Positions 7,148 through 62,372 of a stretch of 64,000 bases of DNA are shown here, in pieces. Numbering within the stretch: position 1 is the stretch's first letter; each line of letters opens with the position of its first letter. The notes beneath the pieces are model-generated. The model searched no databases. It was given only the letters and a program-made list of their open reading frames with translations, and was not told where the DNA came from. Both the position numbers and the translations under genes were made by a program. Source of the stretch: Pelagomonas calceolata (Eukaryota > Sar > Pelagophyceae > Pelagomonadales > Pelagomonadaceae); contig CAKKNE010000002.1 of the NCBI GenBank assembly GCA_918797485.1, forward strand, positions 5,050,501 to 5,114,500. The letters run 5' to 3'.

Positions 7148-7762
7148 GGTATATACCTTGTGGCTGATTCGTGGCCGTGCCGCGGAGATGTGACTCGCGG
7201 GAGAGTGACCCGCAATTAGAGGAGATTATCCGCTGTGTGCAGGCAAAGGTGCGCGCAGGGTGGTGCGCGCAGCGCGTGGGATACCTAATGTGGATTCTGG
7301 CTACTACTTGAGCACAGATGCAGCCGGCAGGACAAGGCACAAGCTTTGTCGACGCAGGCTTTTCTAGTGTCTTACATGCCGCTAGCTGCTCGAGCCGCGG
7401 CCAAAGCACAGCCAAAACGCGTCGCTGCCGCCTAAAAAGATCGTTCTGGCACGGCCCGAAGACCTGCAAGGCTGCAGCAGCCGTAGCGTCGACGGCTGAC
7501 AGGTGCCCACGATCAAGAGGACTGCACAGACACAACGCGAGTTGCACGGCACAGCGTCCGACGCCTACAAAAAAAAGAAGCGCGTCCGATATGGCAGAGG
7601 CACCAGCCCTTTGGCGGCGCTGCAAAGCGCTGCCACACCGTGGGCTGGCGCCCGTGCGAACGCGCGAGAACGAGTGCTCGGAACGTTATGGAGGGGCCTG
7701 TCGATGTTACCGCCCGCGAGCCTCTATGAACTTCTGACCCATCTCTCTACACAGGCCGCCGC
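7148..7762. other. divergent intergenic interval
   Basis: This interval separates the F-box-like gene (minus) from RhoGDI (plus). It contains the dyad promoter element at 7364-7387 in the RhoGDI orientation. A CAG acceptor-like site about 10 bases before the RhoGDI start (CTACACAGGCCGCCGC) could mark a 5'-UTR intron. The small open frames here show no conserved content. Confidence 0.5.
7364..7387 (+). promoter_or_regulatory. dyad promoter element upstream of RhoGDI
   Basis: The site reads CTAGTGTCTTACATG then CCGCTAGCT. The two CTAG half-sites are 18 bases apart. It lies 377 bases before the ATG, the longest distance among the 14 copies, which fits a 5'-UTR intron. Confidence 0.65.
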
Positions 7763-8439
7763 ATGGCCGAGCTCGACGCCACGGCGGCGCGGAACCAGCC
7801 CTACGCGCCGCGGGGCACGAATGATGTGGATGCGATCCTGAAGCAGGACGACGCGGACGAGTCGCTGCAGCGGTACAAGGCGCAACTGCTCGGCGCGGCG
7901 GCGCAGGGCGACCGGGGCGACGCGTCGGACCCGCAGAAACCTGTGTGGAAATCAACGACGCGGTCACGGGGACAACGTCGCGTCGATGGCGTGGGGCGCC
8001 AGAAATGTTGTTTCCGCGCAGGCGGAAGCTAGTGGTCACAGAGTTCCGCGTCGTCTTCAACTCGCCCGCGCCGGACCAGGTCTTCCACCTCGACACGCGC
8101 GCCGGCAAGGACCACTTGAAAAAAACGGGCGTCGCCGTCAAGGAGGGCTCCGAGTACAAGTTCCGCCTGTCCTTCCGCGTGCAGCACGAGATCCTGCCGG
8201 GCCTGAAATACGTGAATCGATTGAAGCGCATGGGCATGAAGACGGCCGCCGACGAGCTCGTCATCGGGAGTTACGCGCCCCAGACCGAGCCGCACAGCTT
8301 CGAGTTCCCGCGGTACGACTGGCTCGAGGCGCCGAAAGGTATGATGTACCGCGGCGCGTACACCGCGAGCGACCGGTTCGTCGACGGCGACGGCCGGACG
8401 CACCTCGAGTACGACTACCCCGTCAAGGTGACGAAGTAA
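7763..8439 (+). CDS. Rho GDP-dissociation inhibitor (RhoGDI)
   Basis: Exons 7763-7932 and 8022-8439 give 195 residues, the usual RhoGDI length. RhoGDI extracts prenylated Rho/Rac GTPases from membranes and holds them GDP-bound in the cytosol. Residues 25-45 match the N-terminal regulatory arm (DESLQRYKAQLLG). After the splice the immunoglobulin-like domain follows in order: RKLVVTEFRVVF, VAVKEGSEYKFRLSFRVQHE, ILPGLKYV, KTAADELVIGSYAP, APKGMMYRGAY, and FVDGDGRTHLEYDYPVKV. The splice uses a GC donor: CC joined to GCGGAAG restores DPRKLVV exactly where family members read DPRK. It has the dyad promoter element upstream and the 3' motif at 8539 downstream. Confidence 0.93.
7933..8021 (+). mobile_element. 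introner-type GC-AG intron in RhoGDI
   Basis: The 89-bp intron is flanked by GCAGAAAC (start) and GCGGAAGC (first exon bases after it), a 6-of-8 direct repeat. Inside these, CTGTGTGGAAATC at the left and GTTTCCGCGCAG at the right form a partly decayed inverted repeat. The left end equals that of the Mpv17 intron. The interior contains GGTCACGGGG and GTCGCGTCGATGGCGT, shared with the intron at 14556. Confidence 0.8.
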
Positions 8440-8538
8440 TTTTGATTTTTGTTTATTGGTCGCGTCGATGGCGTCTCAGGCTCAGGCTAGTTACGTCGCA
8501 GGGTCCCCCGACCCCTCCCGCTCCCTGGAAGAATCGAT

Positions 8539-8553
8539 GTTACGGTGCTAGGA
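8539..8553 (+). promoter_or_regulatory. downstream motif after RhoGDI stop
   Basis: GTTACGGTGCTAGGA lies 100 bases after the stop codon. The same motif appears after the stops of the genes ending at 10866, 42179 and 48551, always in the gene's orientation, so it may be a 3'-end processing signal. Confidence 0.4.
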
Positions 8554-8878
8554 CTAGTGGGCGGAGCCCCTGCCCAGGGCTGGGGGGGAGACACCGCGCG
8601 TCGCCGATTCATCGGCGGCGGGCGCGGGCCGCTTCTCTCATAACAGCGTACCTCCTTCTAAGCAGAACCGCCTCGACAAACCCCCCCGAACAATGTGCAA
8701 CGTTCGCCCGTTCAATCAACTTGTCCCGCGACTTCCCGCAGGCGACCTTGGACCGCGGCGACGCGTTCGGCACCGTACACTCCAACAAAGCCAGTAGACA
8801 CTCGGCCCGACCCTTGACAATCGCCACGCCCCACTCCCGGTAGATCTGGGCCTGAATCACTCGCTCCCCCAGTCTGGT

Positions 8879-8902
8879 GCTAGTGTCTTACAGCAGCTAG
8901 CT
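8879..8902 (+). promoter_or_regulatory. dyad promoter element upstream of NSUN2-like gene
   Basis: GCTAGTGTCTTACA then GCAGCTAGCT, with half-sites 17 bases apart and 121 bases before the ATG. A CAGGCAACAG box follows about 75 bases later; similar boxes follow the copies at 19052 and 20663. Confidence 0.7.
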
Positions 8903-9021
8903 TTCGCACAGGCCTTGCATGCTCGCAAAAGTGCGAGCCTTTGGGCCGGCAGTGCTGCTCAGCTACACGCGTAGTGGGCTCCAGGCAACAGCATCTCTCG
9001 CGTAGCGATCGATTTTGAGCA

Positions 9022-10866
9022 ATGCCTGCGCCACAACCAAATGCAGAGCAGTGTGATGAGGCTGCCAGCAGCAGCGGCGAAAGCGTAGCCAGCGATGGTC
9101 GTGAGAACACTAGCGACAGTGTCACCACCAATAACAGCAAAGAGGACGCCACAGCTGCATTCAACAGCTACTACAAACACCAAGCCATCAGCGACGACGC
9201 GTCCGCACTTTTCGCGAAGCTTCTGCCGATAGCAGTGCGCGTCAATCGGTCCTCGCCGTGCGCCGCGCTGTGCACCGCCGCGCTGACCATGCGCCCAGCA
9301 CCCGTCGCCGGCACGTATTTCGTCGACGCGGCGAGCGAGCTGCTCGCGGCGTTTCAGGAGGTCGGCGCGCTGGCGCGGCAGGAACTGGTCTCGTGCGTCC
9401 CGCCGGCGCTGTTGGCCGCGCAGCCGGGCGACGTCGTCGCCGATCTGTGCGCCGCGCCGGGCATGAAGGCCCTGCAGCTGCTCGACGCCGTCGGTAGCGA
9501 CGGCCTCGTCGTGGCGTCGGAGGTCGATCGGAAACGGCTCGCCGTCCTCGTGCGTCGCGGGAGGCGGTCGACGGCGAAGGGCGCTTTTCTCGCGTTGTGC
9601 GCGGACGCGCGGCGCTTCCCCGGCATGCGGCGGCGGACGGGCTGGAAGCAGAAGTACGATAAAGTTCTGTGCGACGTGCCCTGCTCCGGCGACGGCACGG
9701 GACGGAAGAAGCGGAGCGTGGTCCGGACCTGGGACGTGCGGCACGGCTTGGGCCTGCACGCGCTGCAGCTGGCTATATTAAACCGGGGCCTCGAGCTGCT
9801 GGGCTACGGCGGGCGCCTCGTCTACTCGACGTGTAGTTTGAACCCCATCGAGTGCGAAGCCGTTGTTTCTGCCGCTCTAGCGAGGCATGCGGGACTGGTA
9901 CGACTCGTCGCGGCGCCGGCGTGGGCCCGCGACCTGTCGACGCCGGGCCTCGCGTCGTGGAGCGTGCCGGGCGCCGCCTACGGAGCGACGCGTGAGGTCT
10001 TTGCGCGGTTCGAGGACGTCTCGAACCCGAAGAAGGCCCGCGTCGCGGCGACGATGTTCCCTCCGGCGGACGGGGCCCCGTTGGCGCTCGCAAGGCGTTT
10101 TTTACCGTCGGAAAAATGCGACTCGGGCGGCTTCTTCGTGGCGATCTTCGAGCGGTCGGCCGAGCGGCGGCCGCCGGCCGCGCCGCGCGCTCCAGTGCCA
10201 TTGCCGCCGGAGGCGCCGCCCGCGCCGCCCGACAAGGAGGGCGACTGGCGCTGCGCCTGCGGCACGAACAACTTCGCGCGGCGGGGGCGCTGCTTCTCGT
10301 GCAAAAAAAGGCGGCCGCGCGTTGTTACGGGTACGTCGAGCCGGCCGCCGCCGCTGCTGGCGCGCTTCGGCGGCGACGCCTCGATCCTCGACGCGTTCTG
10401 CGACGCCTACGGGCTCTCTGCCGCTACGGGCTTCCCGGTGGAATCGGCGTTCCTCCTCAAGCGGCCGAAGCGGAGCTTGCTTGTGATCTCCTCGGCGGCG
10501 CTCGCGGACCTCGCCATCTCGGAGACCTGGGCCGCCGCCGCGGACGTCGGGTGCGCGCTCTGCGAGGTGTCGGAGGAGGACGCCTCGCGCTGGCCGCTCT
10601 TCGACGAGGGGCTGGATGTCTTGGCCCGCTGCGCCACGCGGCGGCGCGTGGCTTTGGGTCCGGACCGGCTCCTCGCGCTCCTGAACGGAGGCGTTCTGAG
10701 TGACTTCGGCGGCGATGGCTCGTACGTGGTGACGTCCAGTCTCGCGGTCGGCGCCGCCACGGGTCGGGTAGCCCTCGGCGCTTCGGTCGCGGACGGCGTC
10801 GCGTCGCTGTCGTCGTCCGCGCGGCTTTGTGAGGCGGTGCGTTGTGTTGTTGGTGCGTTTTTGTAG
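9022..10866 (+). CDS. NSUN2/TRM4-like RNA m5C methyltransferase with RanBP2-type zinc finger
   Basis: The 614-residue protein matches the NOL1/NOP2/Sun family, which methylates cytosine C5 in tRNA and other RNAs using S-adenosylmethionine. Motif I is at about residue 140 (DLCAAPGMKALQLLD). Motif IV is at about 218 (DVPCSGDGTGRKKR) and the catalytic motif VI at about 270 (YSTCSLNPIE). The GDGTGRKK form and the N-terminal FNSYYKHQAI are typical of the NSUN2/TRM4 branch. At about 406-430, where orthologues have only RNA-binding accessory sequence, lies a RanBP2-type finger (DWRCACGTNNFARRGRCFSC) between Pro-rich and Arg-rich linkers. This finger class binds single-stranded RNA or ubiquitin. The C-terminal 190 residues resemble the family's accessory domain. 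It is intronless, with the dyad element upstream and the 3' motif 45 bases after the stop. Confidence 0.88.
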   Translation: MPAPQPNAEQCDEAASSSGESVASDGRENTSDSVTTNNSKEDATAAFNSYYKHQAISDDASALFAKLLPIAVRVNRSSPCAALCTAALTMRPAPVAGTYFVDAASELLAAFQEVGALARQELVSCVPPALLAAQPGDVVADLCAAPGMKALQLLDAVGSDGLVVASEVDRKRLAVLVRRGRRSTAKGAFLALCADARRFPGMRRRTGWKQKYDKVLCDVPCSGDGTGRKKRSVVRTWDVRHGLGLHALQLAILNRGLELLGYGGRLVYSTCSLNPIECEAVVSAALARHAGLVRLVAAPAWARDLSTPGLASWSVPGAAYGATREVFARFEDVSNPKKARVAATMFPPADGAPLALARRFLPSEKCDSGGFFVAIFERSAERRPPAAPRAPVPLPPEAPPAPPDKEGDWRCACGTNNFARRGRCFSCKKRRPRVVTGTSSRPPPLLARFGGDASILDAFCDAYGLSAATGFPVESAFLLKRPKRSLLVISSAALADLAISETWAAAADVGCALCEVSEEDASRWPLFDEGLDVLARCATRRRVALGPDRLLALLNGGVLSDFGGDGSYVVTSSLAVGAATGRVALGASVADGVASLSSSARLCEAVRCVVGAFL

Positions 10867-10910
10867 CTTGTCTGTTTTCGTAGCTTGTTGCTATCATACT
10901 GTTACGGTGC

Positions 10911-10926
10911 TAGAACTTTCGTAGCT
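10911..10926 (+). promoter_or_regulatory. downstream motif after NSUN2-like stop
   Basis: GTTACGGTGCTAGAAC is almost identical to the copy at 8539 and lies 45 bases past the stop codon. Confidence 0.4.
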
Positions 10927-10937
10927 GTAAAATGTTT

Positions 10938-10962
10938 GCTAGTGTCTTTAAGGGGCGCTAGC
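10938..10962 (+). promoter_or_regulatory. dyad promoter element upstream of 2OG oxygenase gene
   Basis: GCTAGTGTCTTTA then AGGGGCGCTAGC. The half-sites are 19 bases apart and the site is 305 bases before the ATG. Confidence 0.65.
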
Positions 10963-11266
10963 CTCGCTTTTTTTAGTGCCACCGGGTATCATTTGCCAGA
11001 GCGCACTATCCGAGCCTCGTCGGCTTTTATCGACTGGTTGTGGTGCTGTCTAAGAGCACTCCGTGCTGCGAAGTTTGCAACGGACTACACGCGCCTGCCC
11101 AGGACGCCGCCGGCGTGCCGTCAGGGCTGTTGAAGCCATAACTGTTTTTGAGCGCTGTAGGACACACGGCGCCTCGTACCGTGGATATACACGCGGTCTA
11201 GCAGCGACTGCGAAATCCCGTCCCACGTGCCCATACTCTTGTTGAGGCACAACAGTTTTTTCAGCC

Positions 11267-11998
11267 ATGGCGGCACGCGGCACGATGTTGCTGGTACTGT
11301 TGCTCAGAGCAAACGCTCTCACGCCGCCGACGCTGCGACGGCCAAGCTTTTTCGCGCCGACCCAGCCGCCACCGGAGACACGACCGCAGAGCGAGTACGA
11401 GGATTCGGACGTCGAGGCGCGCCTCGCCTTTGCGCGCGACGGCCTCTGCGTCGTCGAGGACTTTTTTGATGAGGAGACGTTCGCGGCCTGCCAACGGTCC
11501 GCAAGGCGGCAAAGGGAGCTCAAGCCCGAGACCCTCGAAAGTGTCGCCGTCGGGAGACTCGGCTGCTTCCTCGAGCCGCGCGATCCCGTATGTGTCGCTC
11601 TGTCGAGGCCCGAGTCCGTGGAGCGCCTGCGACGAATCTGCGGGGACGATCGGTTGGAGCCGGCCGACTTTCCGGTCGAGTTAAGGAGGTATCCCGTCGG
11701 CTCGAGCATGGGCTGGCACAAGGACGAGGTCTTGTACGAGGAGCCCCAGCTCGAAGTGGTTCTGACGCTCGAGAACACGTCGGACTCGCAGACGCGCTGG
11801 GAGCGCGCCGACGGGTCCGTGCGCGGCGCGTGGCTCCCGCCCAATTCGCTACTGCTCGTGAAGGCGGAAGGCGCGACGCACGGCGTCACGACGGTCCGGC
11901 GCGGGGATCGATTGATAGCGAAGTTCGTCCTCACGGCGTCGCCCATCAAGCTGCAGGCGTGGTACGACAACATCCTGTCGTACCAGGCGCAGCCGTGA
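11267..11998 (+). CDS. 2-oxoglutarate/Fe(II)-dependent oxygenase, secretory or plastid targeted
   Basis: The 243-residue protein starts with a signal-like segment (TMLLVLLLRANA) followed by a basic, Pro-rich stretch, consistent with a secretory or bipartite plastid presequence. The core carries the double-stranded beta-helix iron-binding triad: GWHKDE gives the HxD pair near residue 150, and ATHGV gives the distal His near 205. RRGDRLIAKF supplies the 2-oxoglutarate-binding Arg. Spacing resembles the prolyl-4-hydroxylase/AlkB-like enzymes. The substrate cannot be told from sequence; protein hydroxylation or small-molecule oxidation are both open. Intronless, with the dyad element upstream and an AGCCATGG start context. 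Confidence 0.75.
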   Translation: MAARGTMLLVLLLRANALTPPTLRRPSFFAPTQPPPETRPQSEYEDSDVEARLAFARDGLCVVEDFFDEETFAACQRSARRQRELKPETLESVAVGRLGCFLEPRDPVCVALSRPESVERLRRICGDDRLEPADFPVELRRYPVGSSMGWHKDEVLYEEPQLEVVLTLENTSDSQTRWERADGSVRGAWLPPNSLLLVKAEGATHGVTTVRRGDRLIAKFVLTASPIKLQAWYDNILSYQAQP

Positions 11999-12033
11999 TG
12001 CTAGCTATCGCACTAATCGTTTGTCTGATCTTC

Positions 12034-12919: not shown

Positions 12920-13310
12920 GCTCCTCTGCCCGCGCGTCGCCAGTCCCAGCGATGCGCGTGCTAGTATCCCCCTCCTGACATAACGCATTCAGACTCGAAT
13001 TTATCTACCCAGACACGACACACGGCGCTGGCGCCACAGATAAGAAAAGTAAGGAAAGGATTGCTAGTGTCTTACATGCCGCTAGCTGCGCCTAGCTCGC
13101 GGTTTAGTTTCACACATTAGGCAAGCGCTGCCGTAGATTTGTTGGCTCACGCGAGCGCATCTGTACCGTTGCACGACCTCCTCAACGTGTGTGCTGCAAC
13201 TTACCGCATTTCGGCAGCAGCAGAGCTATAAAACAGGCAGCGACTACGCGCGCCGACGCCGCGGTACCGAGCGACGCCGCGCTCAATATAAATAGCCGCC
13301 ATAAACAACC
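12920..13310. other. intergenic interval
   Basis: Carries the dyad promoter element at 13063 for the HMG-box gene and a TTAGGCAAGCG box about 30 bases beyond it. Nothing else is recognised. Confidence 0.5.
13063..13087 (+). promoter_or_regulatory. dyad promoter element upstream of HMG-box gene
   Basis: GCTAGTGTCTTACATG then CCGCTAGCT, identical in its core to the copy at 7364. Half-sites are 18 bases apart; the site is 225 bases before the ATG. Confidence 0.7.
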
Positions 13311-15559
13311 ATGGCCGGCGACACCAAGAAAAAGGCCCAGCAAAAAGTCAAAGACTCGGCGACGGGCGTCGAGGTCGCGGTCCCGCAGCCCCCAAAAAGA
13401 CTCAGCGCGTACCAGATCTTCGTCCAGCAGCAGCGCGACGCCACGAAGGCCGCGAATCCCGCGGCGAATTCCCAGGAAATTCTCGGCATCCTGGCCAAGG
13501 CCTGGAACGGCACCGGTGCCGATGAGCGCGCCAAACTTGAGAAGGATGCCGACGAAGACCTCGAAACTAAGAAAAAGATGTGGGCCGTGGGCGAGGATAT
13601 CCGCGAGGCCGAAAGATTACGGGTCTGCAAGGCCTTGGATATGAGTGATAAGACGACCTGGGCGTCGCTCTACGAGAAGGTCGTCGAACGGAACGAAAAA
13701 CTCGGAAGGCCCGCGTCGCCTCGAAGTTCAAAATCCACGTATAAACCGCCCCCAAAGCCTGATGCGGCCTCGATCAAGAAGTCGCGGCAGTGGGCCACGG
13801 CGTTTCAAGGCCAAACGAGAAGGAAAGCCGTGTTATCCGGTTTAGATGCCATCGCAGCACTATCCTCGGATCAAGCGAACTTCGACCAGTTCGGCAACGA
13901 CGCGATCCAGTGTTTTTACGATGTTGCTAGAGCCACGGAGGACCCCGTGCGGGCGAACGCGCTGATGTTCGTCGAACAATTAGCTCATAAATGGCGCCAC
14001 CGCATCTTGAGCAGGGGCTGGCGGTCGTCGGGTCGGCCGACGCCCCAGCAAATCCTGGAGACCATTGTGGGGTTGTACTGTCTGGAACGAGTGGGTGTTT
14101 CTGCCCCGAAGCTCAAAGAGGACGTCGTTCATGCTGTCACATTAACTGGACCTGACGCCGATGATTCTCTCAAACCTTATAGTTGTAAGGACTATTTTGG
14201 GTGGGACCCTGTCCATGACGCGACCGTTCCGGAAGGCGTTGCTGAGGTGTTGTCCGGCGAGGCGGTTACGGTGTACCGGACGCTATGTAACTCCTTGATA
14301 CACGCCTTCTATGCCGAAAGAGCCTCGATAAATATAGGGTGCGGCTACGCCGATGTCCTTGCGAAAGTAGCGACGTTACGACCATATAAATCGCACGGCG
14401 AGCTGCCCTGGGAGTCGTATGTGGATCAAGCCTACCTGATCACGCACGTCGTTTTTACGTTAAACAACTGGGGCGAGCTCGCTCTGGAGCCGGAGTTGCT
14501 GCCGCACGAGCATTTGTTTATCCGGGAGAATTTGGGAGTGGCGGTCCGAGGCTCTGTGCGGAGATCAACGAGTGAGTGAGTTACTTCCACGCCATCGAGC
14601 CGACGCCGTCACGGGGAAGACGTCGCGTCGATGGCGTAGACCCTCCACGCCATCGAGCAGACGCAGTCACAGAGACACCATCGCGTCGATGGCTGGGGCG
14701 TCGATGGCGTGGGGCGCCCGAACTGACGCGCGCGGCGACGCCGTCGACGCGGCAGTTTCGCGACGGCGTCCGTCCCACGCAGGTGCGCGAGCGCGACGCC
14801 CACCTCGTCGGCGAGTACGTGGAGTGTCTAAGGGCGTTTGGTTCTGACGACTCGGACCCTCTCATTCAGCTGGGCATGACGTTTTTGCTGCGGGCGCAGG
14901 ATCCAAACACGCACCGCTGGGACGTCGGTGGCGACGCGTACACGTCGTACCACGCGACGATGGTCGCCTGCCAAGCGTTACTTGTGCATACGCATCGGGG
15001 CTACGGGCCCGGTCTCCCTTCGTGCGTCGCGGTCCTGGAGAAGTGGCACGCGGCCGAACGACCGGACGACGTGCGAGAAAACCCTGATATAGCATTACGG
15101 AAGCGCGTCGACGATAAAGCAAGGAAACCCCCGAAGAAGGAATCGAATGAAGAGAAGCCGGCGTCGCCGCGGCCCCAGAAGCCGGCCGCGGAGCCGAAGA
15201 AGCGGCCCGCGGCGCCCTCTGACCAGAAGAAGCGTCCCGCCTCGCCCGACAAAAGTGCGAAGCCCCCGCCACAAAAGAAGAAGAAGAAGGTCCCCCAGAA
15301 GCTCAGCAAGGAGGATATTGCTGCCGTCGAGGCCAAGATCCAGGAGGCGGTCGCGGGCCAGGCCTGGCCCGTCGCGTCGAAGCTTCTGAAAAATCTCGCG
15401 GAGAGCGACGTCTCCGTGGACCTGCTGAAGACGACGACGGTCGGCAAGACGGTCGCTGCCTTAAAAAAGGCCGCGGACGCGAAATTGGTGATGGCGGCCA
15501 AAGGCTTGGTGGCGCGGTGGAAGCAGATGGTGCGCGACGCGGACGCGGCGTCGTCGTAA
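13311..15559 (+). CDS. HMG-box protein with C-terminal TFIIS-N (LW) domain, two exons
   Basis: Exons 13311-14555 and 14783-15559 give about 673 residues. An HMG box lies at about 25-90 (PPKRLSAYQIFVQQQRDATK followed by the helix ending LETKKKMW). A 280-residue helical middle region has no recognisable family. The C-terminal third starts with a Lys/Pro-rich disordered stretch (PQKKKKKVPQKL) and ends in a TFIIS N-terminal-type helical bundle (LLKNLAESDVSVDLLKTTTV, then GKTVAALKK and LVARWKQMV). HMG boxes bend DNA and TFIIS-N domains bind elongation or Mediator partners, so a chromatin-linked transcription role is inferred. The donor is set by phase; GTGCGG at 14556 matches the GTGCGC at the acceptor, but GTCCGA at 14544 or GTGGCG at 14538 also keep the frame. 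Confidence 0.75.
14556..14782 (+). mobile_element. hairpin-rich introner-type intron in the HMG-box gene
   Basis: The 227-bp intron contains two inverted-repeat units: CCACGCCATCGAGC then GACGTCGCGTCGATGGCGT, and CCACGCCATCGAGC then ATCGCGTCGATGGC, followed by a third TCGATGGCGTGGGGCGCC. The latter block also occurs in the RhoGDI intron and, reversed, at 12034. Flanks GTGCGGAG and GTGCGCGA are a weak direct repeat (5 of 8). Confidence 0.65.
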
Positions 15560-18866: not shown

Positions 18867-19271
18867 AGTGATGATGTCGCACCGCTAATGGACAGCTTGC
18901 TGTAACACCAGAATGGTACCCAGGCTTTGAGGCAGCAGAGGACTTGGGAGCACGCACGCGTCGACGAAAACGTTCGTTCGCGTCTCTATTGCCAATTTGT
19001 TGCAGCGTGGGCAGCGATTAGAGCCTGGGCTGCCCAGATCCAAAGTGCTTCCTAGTGTCTTTACGTGCCGCTAGCTCCGCGGCCGACGATTTGGGCAAAC
19101 TCCCCGCGTTTCACGCAGGAAAGCCACGTTAATTGTTTCTGGCATACTCTAGGCAACAGCGCTTGGCTAGCCGCCCTTCGCGCAGCCGACGGGTTGGCTG
19201 GTAATTAAGGGCTCACTACCCCAGCACTGCGAGGTTGCAAGCCGTCGACGCGGCAGCCTAAAAAAGCAACC
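18867..19271. other. divergent intergenic interval
   Basis: It lies between the minus-strand Cys-rich membrane protein gene and the plus-strand transporter gene. It holds a dyad element oriented toward the transporter (19052) and a CTAGGCAACAGCGC box 95 bases later. No copy faces the minus-strand gene. Confidence 0.5.
19051..19076 (+). promoter_or_regulatory. dyad promoter element upstream of AAAP transporter
   Basis: CCTAGTGTCTTTACG then TGCCGCTAGCT. The half-sites are 19 bases apart and the site is 197 bases before the ATG. Confidence 0.7.
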
Positions 19272-20661: not shown

Positions 20662-20684
20662 GCTAGTATCTTACGATCGCTAGC
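20662..20684 (+). promoter_or_regulatory. dyad promoter element upstream of F-box-like gene
   Basis: GCTAGTATCTTACG then ATCGCTAGCT. Half-sites are 17 bases apart; 164 bases before the ATG at 20848. A CTAGGCAACAAAGG box follows 25 bases later. Confidence 0.65.
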
Positions 20685-33964: not shown

Positions 33965-33986
33965 GCTAGTATGTCGATACGCTAGC
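33965..33986 (+). promoter_or_regulatory. dyad promoter element upstream of OTU gene
   Basis: GCTAGTATGTCGAT then ACGCTAGC, a diverged copy with half-sites 16 bases apart, 135 bases before the OTU ATG in a divergent interval. Confidence 0.55.
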
Positions 33987-35203: not shown

Positions 35204-35764
35204 GTACTGGTCGTTGTTATTCTTTCGTCTTCGCGTCGCGTCGACGGCGTCCTACTCCTGCAAGAAAACTCGGAGCTAGCGTAATCGACATACTAGCAAA
35301 TTCAAAGATACGCCTCAATGGCGTCAAACGAATGACCCAAATTCAGAATACATCCTAGTCGTTCGCCGAGACCAAATATTTGAGAGTAGCGGTCCGGGAA
35401 CATACCCTCGCGCCTCCCGGAAGGCACCGCCCGTGACATTCGCGGATGAGTCTTACGAGTTTCCAAAGTACACCAGCGCTTGGCGCCGCCATCTACCATC
35501 CGAATAGTACATTATATCAACTCCAGCTCAGTTTTCATCCACAATCGACGGAACCGGAGCCGACGGCCCGCGCTCGGAGGACGGGAGAAGAGTTCTACTA
35601 GACAACTCCCGAGTTTATGTTCGTTTCCTTCCGTTTGTTAGTGGTAGAGTCCATCTAACCCGCATCAGCGCCCACTGAGCTATTTTAGATGACCCGTTAG
35701 AGCCGCGCGATTCGTCATCTTCGCGACCACGCGTTTGTACACAGAGTGGCTCAGAACCTGGACC

Positions 35765-38093: not shown

Positions 38094-38511
38094 CCGTACT
38101 GGTGGGGCAGCCTCGGTCGTCGAGTGCTGTCGTCGACGGCGTGCGGAATTGACCACTGGCTGCCCGCGTGCGCGTGCTGCGTGTGCTTTTAACAACACAC
38201 TGGCAGCTTGTCTTGGAGATGTTTTTGGCTCGTACGCGCTGCTAGCGAGGAGTCCTCGCCGAGCTATGGATTGCTTCGAGCAACTTATATGTGTCCGCGC
38301 TGTTTGCTAGTATCTTACAGCCGCTACATAGTCCGAACTTTCAGGCGCGGGACGCGGCATAGCGCATTCCTCGCGCTTAAAACGGTGTTTCCCGTGCACA
38401 CGCATGCTGCTGCTGCTGCCCTGCGAGCGCTGCCTGCATCTAGCAGCGCAACCGTAACGTTGGCGATTACAGCACCAGTGAACAGCAGCACCAGTGAATC
38501 TGTCCGCAGCC
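38094..38511. other. divergent intergenic interval, BBS4 and MFS carrier
   Basis: Holds one dyad element facing the MFS carrier (38306). No copy faces BBS4. Nothing else is recognised. Confidence 0.45.
38306..38328 (+). promoter_or_regulatory. dyad promoter element upstream of MFS carrier
   Basis: GCTAGTATCTTACA then GCCGCTACA; the second half-site is CTAC instead of CTAG. Spacing 17 bases; 184 bases before the ATG. Confidence 0.55.
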
Positions 38512-40575: not shown

Positions 40576-40877
40576 CTGATGTGGTATCTGATATGTAAAT
40601 TATGTATATTGCAAACTCCTTGCTTACATCACCCGGAAAAGTGCTGAGGCTAGAGTCTTACATGCCGCTGGCACATTATTGGCAGCCGCAGTGGAGACCG
40701 TGCGTCCTATACGGCGCACTGATTGACTGGCGCTTCGGAACGCCAACACATCGATCGCTGCGTGCCGCGCGCCCAGCGAAATCCAGCTTGTTCCATCCCT
40801 GCGGTGCAAAAAACGCTCAGTGACCCTGCAGACCGACTGCACCAAAATACGGCATCAGAGAGCGGCGCAGCAGAAAG
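40576..40877. other. intergenic interval
   Basis: Contains a diverged dyad promoter element at 40649. Nothing else is recognised. Confidence 0.4.
40649..40672 (+). promoter_or_regulatory. dyad promoter element upstream of ubiquitin-like/F-box gene
   Basis: GCTAGAGTCTTACATG then CCGCTGGC; both half-sites carry one change. Spacing 18 bases; 206 bases before the ATG. Confidence 0.55.
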
Positions 40878-42287: not shown

Positions 42288-42311
42288 GCTAGTGTCTTAC
42301 AGGACGCTAGA
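42288..42311 (+). promoter_or_regulatory. dyad promoter element upstream of YrdC/Sua5 gene
   Basis: GCTAGTGTCTTACAG then GACGCTAGA. Spacing 18 bases; 113 bases before the ATG and only 24 bases after the 3' motif of the preceding gene. Confidence 0.65.
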
Positions 42312-52074: not shown

Positions 52075-52099
52075 GCTAGCGTGCCTGTAGACACACTAG
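52075..52099 (-). promoter_or_regulatory. dyad promoter element upstream of GPI
   Basis: On the minus strand: CTAGTGTGTCTACA then GGCACGCTAGCG. Spacing 20 bases; 48 bases before the ATG, the closest of all copies. Confidence 0.6.
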
Positions 52100-52194
52100 G
52101 AATCCGCCCTGGGAGGATGTATCGCAGGCGGAGGACGCTTGCGTCTGCCCGAGAGTAATGTGTGCATATGAACAAACTTGGATGGATTACACAC

Positions 52195-53402: not shown

Positions 53403-53426
53403 GCTAGCGTATGTGGACACACTAGG
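53403..53426 (-). promoter_or_regulatory. dyad promoter element upstream of ZZ-finger gene
   Basis: On the minus strand: CTAGTGTGTCCACA then TACGCTAGC. Spacing 18 bases; 75 bases before the ATG. Confidence 0.65.
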
Positions 53427-53486
53427 ATTCCTACGGAAATGTGTCGCACGAGACGAAAGAACAAAAAGGATACAATTAGAAGGGCG

Positions 53487-55030: not shown

Positions 55031-55054
55031 GCTAGCGGGCGTGTAAGACACTAG
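55031..55054 (-). promoter_or_regulatory. dyad promoter element upstream of cyclophilin-like gene
   Basis: On the minus strand: CTAGTGTCTTACACG then CCCGCTAGC. Spacing 19 bases; 71 bases before the ATG. It lies in a divergent interval shared with the gene at 55356. Confidence 0.7.
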
Positions 55055-55355
55055 GGATAAAAGAACACCGATTCCAAACGTCCTTCGACGCCTCCGAGCG
55101 CTCATCGACGGGTGAGCGGAGCCATAGGAGGAGAATCGGTGGCAATTTTGCTCGTCGGTTGGCAGCAGTGCGACGAGCAATAACGTGCTGTTGCTCTGCT
55201 GCCGACGAAACGCAGGCTGCAGACACCTCGCAACGCGGCTCCAGTCGCGCGCGAGCACCGTGGCACGAGGGAACACCCCACGAAGACTGCTCGCAGTTAG
55301 TTTGTAGGGGCAGCCCCAAACAAGAAGCCCCGCAACCGCAGCCGTAAGCAAGACC

Positions 55356-58300
55356 ATGGCCCGTAAAAAGGACCGCAGCCGCAGCCGCAGCAGAGAACCA
55401 GAAGGCGAGAGCCTCATGGACCGCGCGGCGCGTTTAGCTGGAGGCGGCTCGCGGCCGGGCACGGCGTCGAGCGTCGGTTCCGACGACGACTGGCGCGGCG
55501 GCGACCGCGAAGCTTTAGATGCGGCGAGGCAAGCGCGGCGGGAACGGAGCCGGTCAGCTCGGAAAAAGCAGAAGGAGCGGGACGACAAGCATGCGCCCGT
55601 CGAGGAGGCCAAAGAAGAGCCTCCATCGTCAGAACTGATGGACAAGCTCCACGCGCCGCTCAAACGATGCTTGAAGCAACTGAAAGAGGGCGCGGAGAAG
55701 GCCGTGGGCAAGCCCGTGCCGTTCGCCGTGGAGACGCAGCTAAACGATGCCGTTCAATCGCTGCGAGACATCTGTTCGTCCTACGATGGAGTGTGGCGCT
55801 CTTGCATCGCACCTCCATTACGGGGCAATGCTTTCGAGGGGCCCTACGAGCAGTTGTTCGGCCATTTGCAGGAAGAACCTGGGTCGAGTAAATCGCAGCC
55901 GAGGGACCTCGGGTCTACTTACAGGTGGCTATGTGCCGTGACTGAGTTAACCATCGGTGCGGAACTACGAGCTTTAAGCAAATCCTCGGACGCCAAAAAA
56001 TATTTGCTGTGGGACCGCATCAAGAAGGGCTGTCGAGCTTTATGTGAAAACGCGCCCAAAAATTTAGATATTTTTGCGAGTCAGGCGGGCCGGAAACTAG
56101 AGGACCTAGGCGGTCACCGAGGCATGACGCGACTCGTGGTGGAGAATGCTGGGAAAATACCTCTCATCGCCGCCAAGTGCCTCGAAGCGTCGCTCATTGA
56201 CCCGCCCAAGCTCACAGTAGGAACAAGTGTGGAGTTTGCTAAAGGTGCTGATGAGATCTTAAGTAAGGGCTCGGTCGTCGGTGTGTCTGGGAGGACCTGT
56301 GATATTGAGTGTGACGGCACGACAGTTAAAAACGTCCTCATCGATAAAGTGAGAAGGTTTATATCTATACCGGAGAGTAAGGCGGTGGGCGCGCTCCAGA
56401 AGTGCGACATTGTTTTGAGGGTTCTGAAACCAGCATTAGAAGGTGTGGACGTCGGAGCGTTCGCTTCATTCGTAAACGGCAAGGCGTCGATCCCCGAACG
56501 ACTCATAGCAGGCACTTCCACACTCGTGACGCGTCTTCACACATCTTCCGTAAAGGATGCGCTGACTCTGTTGAGATTAGTTGACGAGGACTTAGACACC
56601 GCCGCCAAAACCTTCGACGCCGCGTCGACAGCTCTGAGTGCCGGCGTCGAGGCCGACGTCCGGCCGGGGACACTGTCAGTTCTACTGGAGTTGGTGAGAG
56701 CGGCCAAAACTGCTTCCGACATCGAAGAGAAGCCTGCTGAGGAAGCTCCGGTGGAAGGTGATGAAGAGCGGCGCTCCCAGGCCATCTGTAGTCTGGTGCG
56801 GGGGCCGCCTCTGTTAAAACCGCTCGTCGCCGACATCGTGAATGGTAAGCTCCAAGCGACGCGCCTCAAACAGCGACTGGAAGCTGCCAAGTCCGAAGCG
56901 GCGGCGTTGGGGAACGACGATTCGAGTTGGGATACGGTAGAATTAGCGAAGAAGGTCGAACGAGCTTTAGCTTTGGAATTGTGGTGCTCGCGGCAACCAC
57001 CTCTCACCACTTTCTTGAAGGAGGACCCGGCCCACCTACTAAGAGCTCTATCCTCATCAAAACACGGTTTGCTAGATGTCGCTCAAGATCTGACATCACC
57101 AGGCGCGCCTCTGTGGGCGCCGATGCGGTGCGCGCGTCTCAGTAGTGCAATCATGAACGGTGACGAAGACGACTTCGGGGACCGGGACCTGAAAGTGGGA
57201 CAGGCTTTGATGACCGTGACGTGGCCGTTGCCCTCTTCACCTACAACTTCTGGGGAAGAAGCTCGCGCCGCGATGCTCAAGGCGGATTCGATAGTGCGGG
57301 GCTGGGCTTTAAGAGCCGTGGAAAACGGAGGCGCGAGAGCGGGTGATGATGTGGCGGACCAACTCCAAGAGACGGCGTCACGCTTTGAATCACGAAGCGG
57401 CTCGACAGCCAAAACGGCCGAAAAATCACATGCTATCAAACGAGGCGCGAAGACCGGCACCGAGAAGGCTACTTCAGAATCGGACTTCTGGAAACTCGTG
57501 AGAGTCGCCAAGGCGTCGGTGGCCGTCCGCACGGTCGTGGTCGAGGACGACGAAGAGGCACCGTCTCCAGCAGCGTGGAAGGGCGGGAGCATGCCCATCA
57601 GTGACGAGGGCGACGCGGCCACGTGCATGAGTGAACAAGGCGGTCACGTCGTCGGCTCGCAGCCTCTATCATCGTCCGTGGAGTTTGAGGTGCTCATGTG
57701 GGGCGGCGGGAGATTAGGTGTTTTTGAAGGCAGTGAACCTACGACCCTGGAAGCGGGCTACTTCGACGACCAGGGATGGGGGTTAGGAGAGGGCGGTGTT
57801 CATAGGAAGGGCAAGGTGTTGCGAGGGGTAGAAGGCTTCGAGCTCAAGTCGGGAGACAAGGTCACGGTGACCCACGAGGCTTCTCAAAAAATCCTGACGT
57901 GGAAGGTGAACGGCGAGGACATGTTGAAGTTGGCGTGTCGGAAGGTCAACGGGCCTGTCGTACCGTGTGCTGCTCTACTCCAAGGTTCTGTGGTGCGCCT
58001 GACGTACCCTACTCCTGCTCAAGTTCAGAAACCTACAGATCTGGAGGGAGCCGCCAAGGCCGCGTATGCGTTAGATCAGAAAACATCCCAGGTGCTGCTA
58101 GCTTTGGAAGCGCAGAGCGAGAGAAATGAGGCGATGGAGCAACTGTGTCGGAGCGTCAAGGAGGCGGTGGCCAAGACCGACTACGATAGTGCTATATCTT
58201 TCAGTCGTAAGGTCGACGGTTTGGAAGCATGTTGTCATTGGCTCGAGGACGAGCTCGAGGGCGAAGCGAACGGGCCGCAGTTCGCGCTCTGTAAAAGGGC

Positions 58301-60791
58301 AGCCCCGGAGCCCGCGTTCCGCGGCTACGCGATTCGCAGCGCGCGGTGCCGCGAGAACAGTGTGGTAACTGAAGAGGGAGATGACTCACCGACGAAAGTC
58401 GAGCTGCGGTGGCGAGCGCTATGTCGGGCCCAGGTCCGCGTGGCGCGCTTGGAGACGTTGATCCAAGAAAAGTTTTCCGAGGAAGCCACTGAGAGAGAAT
58501 TGGAGGGCGTCGAGGAGGAACAAGAAGAGGAAGAAGAGCAAGCCACGCCGCGCGTCGACGCCTACGTCGAATTCAGTCGGGAGTGCGGCCTGCCGCGGCC
58601 CTCCGTGAACGAGGCCGCGGCGCTAGCGGCGCGGTTCGGAAGAGGCTGGCTCCGCCTGAAGAAGGCGTGTGGGAGCGTCCGAAACGCCGAGACGGCGCTC
58701 CTGTTCCCGAAGGACCCCATCCAATTGCCCCGTAAAGAGGTAGAGGACGAGGAAGAAGAGGAGTCAGAACAGCCGCTCGAGGCCTCGACGGACCCGGACC
58801 ACGTCTGGGGCCCGCCCGAAGCCCAAGTCATCAAAGCGCCGAAGAGCGCGCGCAAACAGACTGCTTCGTTAACAGCGGTCTGGGCCGACCTCGCGCCCTT
58901 GCTATGTTGTCGCAGCGACGAGCCGCTCGACACCGAGGCCATCGCCTCTGTCGTGGATGAGGCCCTCCAAACTACACAATGTGCGGCCTTCGACGTCATG
59001 AACGCTCTGTCTGCCGTCACTGGCGACGTGCAAGCGACGACTAACTCAAAGCCAGGCTGGCGGCCAAACGGGAAATTGGATTTACACAGAGACTCGTCGG
59101 CGGCGGCGAGGAGCCGGGGCGAAGGCACTCGTCATGACGAGGAGGAGACGAGACAGCAGACGCCCTGCGAGCGGATTGCGGAGCTGGGTCTGGCGAAGGC
59201 GATCCGACAACACTCGCGCTTCGCTCTGAGTGGAGACGCCTTCGCGGCGCACGTTTCGAAAGTGATGGGTTGTGAGAGTGAAGATGCTGATTCTCTACAG
59301 CAATTAGCCGACGACTGGGACTATGGGAATGTGCCCGATCCTTTGGTGAGGGCATTACGGAGGGCCGGTTTTGTGGACGCTGATGACAGCTCAGAGCCAT
59401 CGTCCGGGAACGCTTTGGAAGCGCCCTTGGTGAACGGTGAAATGAATAAAGTGTTGTCCTTTGATGATTTCCATGCTGCTTTGGCCTCGGAGCGCTTCGG
59501 ATGTGTACAAGCGCCCGATTCACTCAAGAAGTTAATTGAAGCGCGGTTCCGGCCTTCTAGCAAGGCCCAGGGGATCGTCGTCGGTGCTTTTTTGGACTGG
59601 ATTCTGCCGAGGGGTACGGGCTTGCCGCTGCAAGTCAACGACGAAGTCGTGACAGTGGACGCGCGCGGCACGGTGGGAGACGCTCGTTTAAGGATCTCCC
59701 GCAACGAAGGCACGCTGAAATGCGACGGGAGTATTGTACCGAAATCAGGAGACCACCGGGCGGCGTTCCTCGTCTTCACGTCCGATGATATCGAGTTTGT
59801 AGAGCGCACGAAGACGACGACGAGGTCACACGGCTTCATCCGGAGACCGCCCCCGCGCACGAAGGAGGCCATGGACCACGCCTGGAATAATAGAGATCTG
59901 AAAAAACCTCATCATTGGTCGAAGCTGTGCATCGCCGCATTTCTGAAGCGCAAGGGGTATGATGATGAGCTCATTGAGGCCTTTGAAGAGAGAGCCGTGG
60001 ATGGTTATATGTTATTTGGGAGAGGCAAGGAGTCGGTCGCTTCTTTAGCATCATTGGAGGCGTGGGGTGCTGACGACCCGGAGCCGTTGCGAACTGACCT
60101 GATCAAGGTAAGATTATTAGCGGAAGGGCACAACGACCCGACGGAACGAGCGAAAGTGCTCCAAGAGTGCGGCTACGACCTAAGTAGGCGGAACGGCGAC
60201 GTCGTCGAGCAAGCTCATAGTGGCGTGTCTGAGAAAGTACAGGAGCGGCGGGCTGTCCAGAGAGCCGTGGACAAGCTGAAGATCGCGTCGCGCGAGACGC
60301 CTTTAGAACCGACGTTCAAGAACACGGCCATGGCGCGCGTGAAGGAAATTGTTGATGGGGAAGATGCGGAGACCGTCGGCGCGCTGCGCGAACTCGCCGA
60401 GGACTGGCTGAAGTCGAGGATGCCCAAGCCCAAGAAGGTCGCGCGGCGATTGCCGAGGCGGCCGAAGCGCGGCGTGCTCGTTTCTGCGGCGCCGGTGAAG
60501 CCTCAGCCTCCAGCGCCGGCGCCGCGGCCGCCCGACGAGGCGCAACGCGGCGTCGCCGGATTATTTTCGTTTGCGGCAGCTAGACAGGCCTTCCGCCAGT
60601 ACTCCGGTGATGGTTTGACGGGTGTTCACGACGCGACGTGGCGCGACGCCTGTAGAGCTGTCTCCGAATTAGTGGACGAGTCCGGCGACGCGACGCCCGT
60701 CTTCCTCGCCGAGTTCACCAGTCAGTTGGAGCTTGATTTGGGTGCGGACGTGCGGCGGCCGGTCGTGGACATGGATGAGCCGATCTGGTAA
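55356..60791 (+). CDS. 1811-residue SR-rich/SPRY-containing protein, intronless
   Basis: The start is an AGACCATGG at 55356. Residues 1-90 are an SR-type region (KKDRSRSRSREPEGE; RRERSRSARKKQKERDDK), as in splicing and RNA-processing factors. A central part at about 770-890 looks like a SPRY/B30.2 fold (VEFEVLMWGGGRLGVFEG, GYFDDQGWGLGEGGVHRKGK, SGDKVTVTHEASQKILTWKV). Long helical and acidic stretches follow (EGVEEEQEEEEEQ). Around 1350 is a helix-loop-helix segment (VLSFDDFHAALASERFG). Near 1590 is a UBA-like helical set. Large adaptor or RNA-processing function is inferred; no overall orthologue is recognised. A continuous 5.4-kb frame without an introner is notable here. Confidence 0.75.
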   Translation: MARKKDRSRSRSREPEGESLMDRAARLAGGGSRPGTASSVGSDDDWRGGDREALDAARQARRERSRSARKKQKERDDKHAPVEEAKEEPPSSELMDKLHAPLKRCLKQLKEGAEKAVGKPVPFAVETQLNDAVQSLRDICSSYDGVWRSCIAPPLRGNAFEGPYEQLFGHLQEEPGSSKSQPRDLGSTYRWLCAVTELTIGAELRALSKSSDAKKYLLWDRIKKGCRALCENAPKNLDIFASQAGRKLEDLGGHRGMTRLVVENAGKIPLIAAKCLEASLIDPPKLTVGTSVEFAKGADEILSKGSVVGVSGRTCDIECDGTTVKNVLIDKVRRFISIPESKAVGALQKCDIVLRVLKPALEGVDVGAFASFVNGKASIPERLIAGTSTLVTRLHTSSVKDALTLLRLVDEDLDTAAKTFDAASTALSAGVEADVRPGTLSVLLELVRAAKTASDIEEKPAEEAPVEGDEERRSQAICSLVRGPPLLKPLVADIVNGKLQATRLKQRLEAAKSEAAALGNDDSSWDTVELAKKVERALALELWCSRQPPLTTFLKEDPAHLLRALSSSKHGLLDVAQDLTSPGAPLWAPMRCARLSSAIMNGDEDDFGDRDLKVGQALMTVTWPLPSSPTTSGEEARAAMLKADSIVRGWALRAVENGGARAGDDVADQLQETASRFESRSGSTAKTAEKSHAIKRGAKTGTEKATSESDFWKLVRVAKASVAVRTVVVEDDEEAPSPAAWKGGSMPISDEGDAATCMSEQGGHVVGSQPLSSSVEFEVLMWGGGRLGVFEGSEPTTLEAGYFDDQGWGLGEGGVHRKGKVLRGVEGFELKSGDKVTVTHEASQKILTWKVNGEDMLKLACRKVNGPVVPCAALLQGSVVRLTYPTPAQVQKPTDLEGAAKAAYALDQKTSQVLLALEAQSERNEAMEQLCRSVKEAVAKTDYDSAISFSRKVDGLEACCHWLEDELEGEANGPQFALCKRAAPEPAFRGYAIRSARCRENSVVTEEGDDSPTKVELRWRALCRAQVRVARLETLIQEKFSEEATERELEGVEEEQEEEEEQATPRVDAYVEFSRECGLPRPSVNEAAALAARFGRGWLRLKKACGSVRNAETALLFPKDPIQLPRKEVEDEEEEESEQPLEASTDPDHVWGPPEAQVIKAPKSARKQTASLTAVWADLAPLLCCRSDEPLDTEAIASVVDEALQTTQCAAFDVMNALSAVTGDVQATTNSKPGWRPNGKLDLHRDSSAAARSRGEGTRHDEEETRQQTPCERIAELGLAKAIRQHSRFALSGDAFAAHVSKVMGCESEDADSLQQLADDWDYGNVPDPLVRALRRAGFVDADDSSEPSSGNALEAPLVNGEMNKVLSFDDFHAALASERFGCVQAPDSLKKLIEARFRPSSKAQGIVVGAFLDWILPRGTGLPLQVNDEVVTVDARGTVGDARLRISRNEGTLKCDGSIVPKSGDHRAAFLVFTSDDIEFVERTKTTTRSHGFIRRPPPRTKEAMDHAWNNRDLKKPHHWSKLCIAAFLKRKGYDDELIEAFEERAVDGYMLFGRGKESVASLASLEAWGADDPEPLRTDLIKVRLLAEGHNDPTERAKVLQECGYDLSRRNGDVVEQAHSGVSEKVQERRAVQRAVDKLKIASRETPLEPTFKNTAMARVKEIVDGEDAETVGALRELAEDWLKSRMPKPKKVARRLPRRPKRGVLVSAAPVKPQPPAPAPRPPDEAQRGVAGLFSFAAARQAFRQYSGDGLTGVHDATWRDACRAVSELVDESGDATPVFLAEFTSQLELDLGADVRRPVVDMDEPIW

Positions 60792-60822
60792 GTACTAGTA
60801 CAAAAATAGAATTACTATCCCT

Positions 60823-62269
60823 CTAGTAGTGATCGAGGTCAATTTCGATTCGCCCCACGACCGTGGCGAAGTTTGGGGGGAGGTCGAGCAAACGAATGCC
60901 TCGCGCCTTGTATTTCTCCTGCCGGAGGAATAGTTTGGCGAACCAGTTGTGGTGCATCCTCGGCGGGGGTAAATAGCCACTTGGCTCATATGTAAATTCC
61001 GCGCTCCACTTCGGCTGCCCTTCCCGCGGCGTCTCGAAGACATGGCATATCGCATCCCACGTTTCCTTCAAAGTATATAAATTTCGTGGGTTGTCAAAAT
61101 GTATTCTCGTAGGTGGGTTCTCCAGCAACTTGTCCGCGAACGCGCTCATCAGCTCGAGCCGCCGTGGGTCCATGCGCGTCTCGCTTCGGAACGAGCGGTG
61201 CGGATCCGGGATGCGAAAAACGCGGCCGTCCCAACTTGCTTTTGAGATGTTGAGGTCACATGATGCGAGCAGGGTCCGGGCATCCGCCACGTTGGTGTTC
61301 GCGATCACGAGGTCGATGATCTTTTCTTCATCAAGCCGCCGGTCGTAAGAGAAGGCGTCCGTGTCCGCCGCGGCTCGGATGCGGTACTCCGGCGCGTTCC
61401 AATCTTCAATGAACCCATAGGCCCCTTCTGATTGAAGGCCATCAAAGGATGCGTTGCGTGTGTCCATGTCGCGAGTCGCGCCCGAGGCCCACGCGGTCGC
61501 GTCGGCTAGCGAAAATTCTTCACGGTCAGAGTCATCAGAGTCATATTCGTCGAAACAATAGCCTTCTTCAGGCGTCAGCGAGTAGCCCTCCGTGTGATGG
61601 ACGCGACCTGTGCGCAAATCAATCAGTGAGTCGCGTGCACCGATAATTCTTCACAATGCGACGCGATGCGACAATTTGATTTATGCACAGGACGTGACAC
61701 TCCATCGCTTTTCCCATGAGGTCTGCGCCGAGGTCGAGATACATGCAATTGGGACCGCATTGCACCGTCGACAGCGTCAGGCCCCTGCCGCAGAGTCGCG
61801 AGCGCACCCCGGGCGCCGCCGCGGCAGTCGTGAAGATATCAACGTCTATCTTGTCCTTGTAATACTCAGAGTCAGGGTCCATTTCGACACGGCGTCTCGC
61901 GCCTGGGTACTCATCACCCGTCCACACCGTACCCAGCACGCACTGCGCCATCGTCGACCCGGCGATCAGCGCGCCTGGCCGCCCGTCCGCGTCCACCAGC
62001 GCCTTGAAATCGACGGCCTCCGGCGAGACGCCGCGTGCCTTGAGTACGCGTGCGAGACTGCTTTCCAGCGACACGCGCAGCGCCCGCGTCGCGCGCGGGA
62101 CGTCGTTTTCCTTGACGTGGAATGACTTCGCCGTCAGACAGAGCGCGTACGTCTGCGGCGGCCTCAGAAACCCTGCCAGTGTGCGGAGGCAGTGCGCCAT
62201 GGTGCCGGCGGGGGCGGAGTGGTACTTTTGGGCATAGCTGGCACAGGTGCGCCTCGGACGGCGCGCCAT
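60823..62269 (-). CDS. nucleotidyltransferase-fold-like protein of a giant-virus/protist family, two exons
   Basis: Exons 62269-61663 and 61607-60823 encode 463 residues. The N-terminus has a short helical F-box-like stretch (LRTLAGFLRPPQTYALCLTA). Then GALIAGSTMAQCVLG followed by KIDVDIF gives the G-S ... D-x-D pattern of minimal nucleotidyltransferases. After an acidic insert come KIIDLVIANTNVADARTLLA, SCDLNISKASWDG and a late basic helix region. Proteins with this order (GS/GG, DxD, then an IDLI strand and FDLxI motif) are common in nucleocytoplasmic large DNA viruses and some protists; the function is not known. The 55-bp intron (61608-61662) has donor GTCGCATT and first exon bases GTCGCGTC, a 6-of-8 direct repeat. 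Family placement is from motif memory. Confidence 0.6.
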
Positions 62270-62348
62270 GATGGAGCAAGGCTGCCCGAATTGAACTCCT
62301 GGAGTCCTGCTCTTCCTGATGATCGATTTGGTTGGGCTTGCTATGCTT

Positions 62349-62372
62349 GCTAGTGTGTTACAGGCCGCTAGT
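62349..62372 (+). promoter_or_regulatory. dyad promoter element upstream of the signal-peptide ORF at 62550
   Basis: GCTAGTGTGTTACAG then GCCGCTAG. Spacing 18 bases; 178 bases before the ATG. Confidence 0.6.

What the first reader, a model, noticed from the sequence alone, without database searches (positions are those of the whole stretch)
7364..62372. A recurrent dyad promoter element: 14 sense-oriented copies upstream of 14 unrelated genes
CTAGTGTCTTACA, a short spacer, then CGCTAGC occurs at 7364, 8879, 10938, 13063, 19051, 20662, 33965, 38306, 40649, 42288 and 62349 on plus, and at 52075, 53403 and 55031 on minus. All precede a start codon by 48-377 bases, all in the gene's direction, with half-site spacing of 16-20. 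Genes range from GPI to NSUN2 and OTU. Several copies are followed by a GGCAACA box. This looks like a core promoter module or a zinc-finger/Myb-type dyad site that replaces a TATA box. I know of no description of it.
Basis: seen in the sequence. Interest (0 to 1): 0.85.

Follow-up and report, generated by a model that had tools for sequence, protein, structure and literature searches.

The report
Two-way promoter element in picoalga
A roughly 24-letter DNA sign, GCTAGTGTCTTACA-NNN-CGCTAGC, occurs thousands of times in the genome of a very common ocean alga (Pelagomonas calceolata), almost always about 200 letters before genes and often midway between two genes that run apart, so it is probably the landing site of an unknown protein that opens promoters in both directions.

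Summary
The motif is real. Every listed site is present, far beyond chance. The genome (32,445,274 bp, 8 contigs; matches Pelagomonas calceolata RCC100) holds 1,510 exact copies (reversed control 0) and 3,817 of the looser dyad (control 66). Unbiased sampling of 224 kb gives 46 copies, so about 6,600 by extrapolation, upstream of about a third of genes.

The key interpretive claim, sense orientation, fails. Outside the window, copies between tandem genes are 12 sense and 10 antisense. Most copies sit midway in divergent intergenic regions, about 190-200 bp from both coding starts; copies are rare in convergent regions.

ATG triplets are depleted outward from the element towards flanking starts on both sides, but not towards gene ends, so transcription probably starts just outside it in both directions. 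A/T tracts flank it. In relatives 82-94% identical it stays as an island in diverged promoters. TATAAA and GGCAACA are not enriched.

Best reading: an orientation-independent dyad site for a general regulatory factor (like yeast Reb1/Abf1 or animal NRF1/ZNF143) that opens shared, bidirectional promoters. The binding protein is unknown. I found no description in the papers searched.

The parts
7363..7386 (+). element, divergent gap; right gene RhoGDI (+), left gene on minus (ATG 7147)
8879..8901 (+). element, tandem gap, sense; before RsmB/F (NSUN-type) methyltransferase, ATG 9022
10938..10962 (+). element, tandem gap, sense; before ORF with ATG 11267
13063..13086 (+). element (perfect consensus), tandem gap, sense; before HMG-box gene, ATG 13311
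19051..19075 (+). element, divergent gap between minus gene (ATG 18866) and amino-acid transporter (ATG 19272)
20662..20684 (+). element, tandem gap, sense; before ORF with ATG 20848
33965..33986 (+). element, form B (CTAGTATGTCGATACGCTAGC), divergent gap; right gene OTU protease, left gene on minus (ATG 33886)
38306..38328 (+). element, divergent gap between TPR gene (minus, ATG 38093) and MFS transporter (ATG 38512)
40649..40672 (+). element, tandem gap, sense; before ubiquitin-domain gene, ATG 40878
42288..42311 (+). element, tandem gap, sense; before Sua5/YrdC gene, ATG 42424
52075..52100 (-). element, long-spacer variant, tandem gap, sense; before phosphoglucose isomerase, ATG 52027
53403..53426 (-). 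element variant, tandem gap, sense; before ZZ-finger gene, ATG 53328
55031..55055 (-). element, divergent gap between cyclophilin-type gene (minus, ATG 54960) and an 1811-aa ORF (plus, ATG 55356)
62349..62372 (+). element, antisense copy: upstream of a minus-strand ORF (61619-62269), next to the minus-strand ankyrin gene

Best explanation
The element (consensus cTTGCTAGTGTCTTACA-N1-4-CGCTAGCt: an imperfect inverted repeat of GCTAGYG with a conserved, flexibly spaced centre) is the binding site of one abundant sequence-specific factor, probably a dimer or multi-domain protein, acting as a general regulatory factor. Bound in either orientation, with adjacent A/T tracts, it keeps a nucleosome-free region open, and RNA polymerase II starts just outside the site towards whichever gene start or starts flank it, about 190-200 bp from the coding start. 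One element can serve both genes of a divergent pair. Shown by computation: abundance, placement, freedom of orientation, centring, ATG asymmetry, A/T tracts, conservation. Inferred: protein binding, nucleosome depletion, position of transcription starts.
For: 1,510 exact and 3,817 looser copies against 0 and 66 in controls; 94% of left boxes carry the right box. Weight matrix: 42 sites in 224 unbiased kb, 0 in reversed DNA. Gaps holding elements: 21 divergent, 18 tandem, 2 convergent, of 37, 52 and 41 available (p=4e-6); independent loci 31, 12, 1. Central in divergent gaps, about 190 and 200 bp from the two starts. Tandem orientation 12:10 outside the window. ATG depleted outward on start-facing sides (95 against 239 CAT, p=2e-15), not on end-facing sides. 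A/T tracts within 25 bp on both sides. Conserved islands at four promoters in relatives.
Against: No binding, chromatin or transcript data. Gene models are approximate. Window tandem copies are 8:1 sense, and all tandem copies together about 2:1, so a mild orientation preference is not excluded. Three copies lie in apparently convergent gaps (35297, L046 4808, L024). ATG depletion marks the boundary of the transcribed leader only indirectly.
Confidence: 0.72

Rival explanations
1. Directional core promoter element: it takes the TATA position and fixes one transcription start in its own 5'-to-3' direction; antisense copies would drive upstream non-coding transcripts.
For: Window tandem copies are nearly all sense; ATG depletion is strongest from about 30-40 bp outside the element, a TATA-like distance; the motif itself is asymmetric in its centre.
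Against: 12 sense to 10 antisense outside the window; ATG depletion equally on the motif's 5' side; distance to the start does not depend on motif direction in divergent gaps (198 and 187 bp, p=0.09). Known stramenopile core elements show forward bias of 1.8-5.9 (PMC3599244).
Confidence: 0.15
2. Insulator or nucleosome-phasing boundary site that separates neighbouring promoters but does not itself promote initiation.
For: Central position between divergent genes; orientation freedom; A/T tracts.
Against: Nearly absent between convergent genes; ATG asymmetry begins at the element, which ties it to transcription starts.
Confidence: 0.08
3. 3'-end signal: terminator or RNA hairpin of the upstream gene.
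For: In tandem gaps it also lies downstream of a gene; the boxes could pair as GCUAGUG/CGCUAGC.
Against: 2 of 41 convergent gaps hold one, against 21 of 37 divergent gaps; no covariation at the outer pair (58 of 91 paired, 58.8 expected); orientation free.
Confidence: 0.01
4. Short mobile element or terminal-repeat relic spread by transposition.
For: The genome has introner-like dispersed repeats; one sub-type of the element shares about 37-42 bp at 88-95% among some 20 loci.
Against: No conservation beyond about 4 bp outside the element; strict promoter placement; island conservation at orthologous promoters in relatives.
Confidence: 0.03

Closest known systems
Yeast general regulatory factor sites (Reb1, Abf1, Cbf1, Rap1) with poly(dA:dT) tracts (PMC2897762)
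   Same: Site upstream of many unrelated genes, A/T tracts close by, bipartite or dyad architecture (Abf1), orientation freedom; new GRF sites arise by lineage
   Different: Sequence unrelated; about twice as long; much more strictly conserved; factor unknown; nucleosome depletion not measured here
Animal promoter factors of bidirectional promoters (NRF1, ZNF143/SBS, Drosophila M1BP and DREF; from own knowledge)
   Same: Long or palindromic sites at TATA-less housekeeping and divergent promoters
   Different: Different sequence; flexible spacing between boxes; here about a third of all genes; no homologous factor identified
Oomycete core promoter elements INR, FPR, DPEP (PMC3599244)
   Same: Stramenopile, TATA-less promoters, common among genes
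   Different: Those are short, lie at the start site and are forward-biased 1.8-5.9 fold; this is 24 bp, orientation-free and about 190-200 bp from the coding start
TATA box
   Same: ATG depletion becomes strong about 30-40 bp outside the element, a TATA-like spacing (inference)
   Different: Not AT-rich; acts on both sides; TBP is encoded but TATAAA is not enriched upstream

Membership tests
General regulatory factor (GRF) binding site | Enriched upstream of many functionally unrelated genes | tested here: met
   34 of 39 loose matches in non-coding 300 bp upstream, 5.6 expected, p=7e-24; varied genes
General regulatory factor (GRF) binding site | Works in either orientation | tested here: met
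   12 sense, 10 antisense in tandem gaps outside the window; placement only, not activity
General regulatory factor (GRF) binding site | Nucleosome-depleted region with adjacent poly(dA:dT) | tested here: inconclusive
   A/T tracts met; nucleosome occupancy not testable
General regulatory factor (GRF) binding site | Bound by an abundant Myb-type, zinc-finger or similar protein | not testable with these tools
   no binding data; factor unknown
Directional core promoter element (TATA, INR type) | Forward orientation bias relative to the gene | tested here: not met
   12:10 outside the window, p=0.83
Directional core promoter element (TATA, INR type) | Fixed distance to the transcription start | not testable with these tools
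   no CAGE or RACE data; ATG depletion only suggests nearby starts
Transcription terminator / RNA hairpin | Located at gene 3' ends, including convergent gaps; paired stem kept by covariation | tested here: not met
   2 of 41 convergent gaps; no covariation
Mobile element (MITE, introner) | Conserved repeat body or termini beyond the motif | tested here: not met
   information falls to near zero about 5 bp outside

The most novel reading that the evidence does not exclude
Pelagophytes have a lineage-specific, non-TATA, non-INR initiation platform: one dyad-binding factor sets transcription starts symmetrically on both sides of a roughly 24-bp site, so gene pairs share a truly bidirectional core promoter, and this serves about a third of all genes.
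Probability: 0.25. Interest if true: 0.78.

Novelty: new variant of a known kind. Interest (0 to 1): 0.56.

Why it matters
[quoted passage not shown] A strongly conserved 24-bp element at about a third of its genes gives a handle on transcription in this group: it helps place gene starts, gives a design rule for reporters, and is a ready bait for the binding protein. If confirmed, it is another independent invention of the Reb1/NRF1-like way of building bidirectional promoters.

Tried and rejected
Long same-strand runs in the place lists first looked like polycistronic arrays; the lists are truncated unevenly by strand (whole counts are balanced, 738 and 772), so this is a listing artefact. 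GGCAACA as companion box: 26 in 224 kb, mostly in coding sequence, p=0.53. RNA hairpin: no covariation. Terminator: contradicted by convergent gaps. Non-coding RNA promoters: no Rfam or tRNA hits in window or loci. Two other over-represented long words (ACGCCATCGACGCGAC and CCTGTGTGGAAATCAA) look like parts of introner-like dispersed repeats. The Aureococcus virus early promoter AAAAATGA is unrelated (PMC5917014). No exact copy in viral contigs.

Full report
WHAT WAS CHECKED. The left box alone, with up to two mismatches, occurs 10 times against 0.34 expected from shuffles. A 15th copy on the minus strand at 35275-35297 was missed.

WHICH GENOME. The window lies in contig C2 of a 32,445,274-bp, 8-contig genome. 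Contigs 7 and 8 are 90,574 and 39,373 bp. This matches Pelagomonas calceolata RCC100: six nuclear contigs of 32.4 Mb, a 90-kb plastid, a 39-kb mitochondrion, 63% GC, 16,667 genes, 0.45 introns per gene (PMC9481584). The identity is an inference from these figures.

HOW COMMON. CTAGTGTCTTACA-N1-8-GCTAG occurs 1,510 times, 0 in the backward control. CTAGTGTCTTACA alone occurs 1,599 times, so 94% carry the second box: the unit is bipartite. CTAGT-N6-16-CGCTAGC occurs 3,817 times against 66 in the control. A sister form, CTAGTRTGTCGAT-N0-2-ACGCTAG, occurs 108 times, control 0. In 224 kb chosen without regard to the motif (the window plus sixteen 10-kb pieces), a two-block weight matrix finds 42 sites of 10 bits or more and none in reversed DNA; with weaker variants I count 46, and at least three more variants were seen by eye. 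Extrapolation gives roughly 6,600-7,000 copies. Of 147 predicted genes, 53 (36%) have one within about 300 bp upstream.

ANATOMY. From 87 unique sites the consensus is cTT-GCTAGTGTCTTACA-KKM-CGCTAGC-t, with information falling to near zero about five bases outside. The left GCTAGTG and the right CGCTAGC form an inverted repeat of GCTAGYG. The distance between the boxes varies by single bases: CTAGT-to-CGCTAGC spans 19-25 bp, 53% at 23.

PLACEMENT. I predicted genes with a codon-score model. No element of the placement table lies inside a predicted gene; one loose-pattern match does. The flanking gaps are divergent for 21 elements, tandem for 18 and convergent for 2, against 37, 52 and 41 gaps of each kind (Fisher p=4e-6). 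Motif-centred loci give 31 divergent, 12 tandem, 1 convergent. In divergent gaps the element lies centrally (quartiles 0.39-0.56 of the gap), with medians of 190 and 200 bp to the two coding starts. The downstream genes are unrelated: phosphoglucose isomerase, RsmB/F methyltransferase, HMG-box, amino-acid transporter, MFS, ubiquitin-domain, OTU, Sua5, ZZ finger, cyclophilin, RhoGDI.

ORIENTATION. Only tandem gaps can test orientation, because between divergent genes either direction is sense for one of them. In the window, tandem copies are 8 sense, plus 62349, which is antisense. Outside the window they are 12 sense and 10 antisense, p=0.83. The median distance to the start is 191 bp (sense) and 234 bp (antisense). 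So 'all in the gene's direction' is a local coincidence plus the divergent-gap effect.

WHERE TRANSCRIPTION PROBABLY STARTS. Without RNA data I used upstream ATGs, which message leaders tend to avoid. Reading outward from the element towards a gene start, ATG is depleted against its strand control CAT (95 against 239 in the first 150 bp, p=2e-15). Reading outward towards a gene end it is not (32 against 43). The asymmetry is present on both sides of the motif, is already visible next to the element, and is strongest from about 30-40 bp. This suggests starts just outside the element in both directions. It is an inference.

CONTEXT. T and A tracts cluster within 25 bp of the element on both sides. 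TATAAA is not enriched upstream of genes (p=0.5), a looser TATAWAW mildly so (p=0.005), GGCAACA not (p=0.53). TBP is encoded.

CONSERVATION. Exact copies turned up in five contigs filed under bacterial metagenome-assembled genomes. L034, L033 and part of L035 are DNA of Pelagomonas relatives: 82-90% identical (L034, L033) and 94% identical (L035) to this genome over coding stretches, largely collinear. At four orthologous promoters (L034 2221, L034 4311, L033, L035) the element survives. In L033, GGGATGCCTAGTGTCTTACAGG(A/C)CGCTAGC is kept while the surrounding promoter is about 70% identical. A fifth copy (L034 5374) had no aligned counterpart in the piece I took.

MECHANISM. The best model is a site for an abundant dyad-binding general regulatory factor that opens a shared promoter region from which polymerase II starts outward in either or both directions. 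Shown by computation: abundance, placement, freedom of orientation, centring, ATG boundary, A/T tracts, conservation. Inferred: the protein, nucleosome depletion, exact starts. A directional core element is disfavoured: stramenopile core elements described so far show forward bias of 1.8-5.9 (PMC3599244), this one about 1.2 outside the window.

KNOWN OR NEW. Four pelagophyte papers contain no matching mention of promoters or motifs in their main text, and literal searches for the sequence found only unrelated papers. Most subscription papers and all supplements were out of reach, so a description may exist. As a kind it stands with yeast GRFs (PMC2897762) and animal NRF1/ZNF143-like factors (own knowledge): it works like these; membership is unproven because factor and chromatin data are missing.

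LIMITS. Gene models are approximate and ignore small exons. Genome letters were limited to 300,000, so placement and orientation rest on 98 elements, 52 of them chosen by the exact motif. No transcription, chromatin or binding data were available.

Noticed in passing
L031, L033, L034, L035 (genome contigs): Contigs filed under marine Spirochaeta and Desulfobacteraceae metagenome-assembled genomes carry Pelagomonas-like nuclear DNA; L033 and L034 come from a relative only 82-90% identical, perhaps an undescribed species.
   Followed up: partly
L032 1-8000: A 77-kb 'Spirochaeta' contig carries a perfect element at 2169 (minus) but bacterial genes (MgtE, sigma-70, NicO) from about 3 kb on; probably a chimeric assembly.
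   Followed up: partly
window 24235, 24392, 34106, 47016, 53836, 55308; L041 3610, 3643: A second promoter-enriched word, the palindrome GGGCWGCCC: 13 of 23 sites in 300-bp upstream regions, 3.3 expected, p=3e-6. Possibly a second factor's site.
   Followed up: partly
window 7941, 14589-14710, 17099, 17175; L039 8130-8621; L047 6084, 8577, 8915: Dispersed repeats with CCTGTGTGGAAATCAA and inverted ACGCCATCGACGCGACGC pieces, probably the introner elements reported for this genome (PMC9481584).
   Followed up: partly
window 35275-35297; L046 4808; L024 1501: Elements in apparently convergent gaps, two of them form B; they may mark unpredicted short genes or non-coding transcripts.
   Followed up: partly
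L026/L027 (G000:C1:575888-575946); L046 8223 and 8280: Paired elements: two direct copies 37 bp apart, and two facing copies about 57 bp apart within one divergent gap.
   Followed up: no
L033 1045-1099: A sub-type with an extended 5' flank (TTGCT-N-GGGATGC before CTAGTG) matches some 20 other loci over 30-42 bp at 88-100% identity.
   Followed up: no
L034 2050-2173 (G000 repeat hits): A repeat of about 120 bp with some 40 copies in the own genome sits next to the element in L034 but is absent from the orthologous site in this genome: a recent insertion.
   Followed up: no
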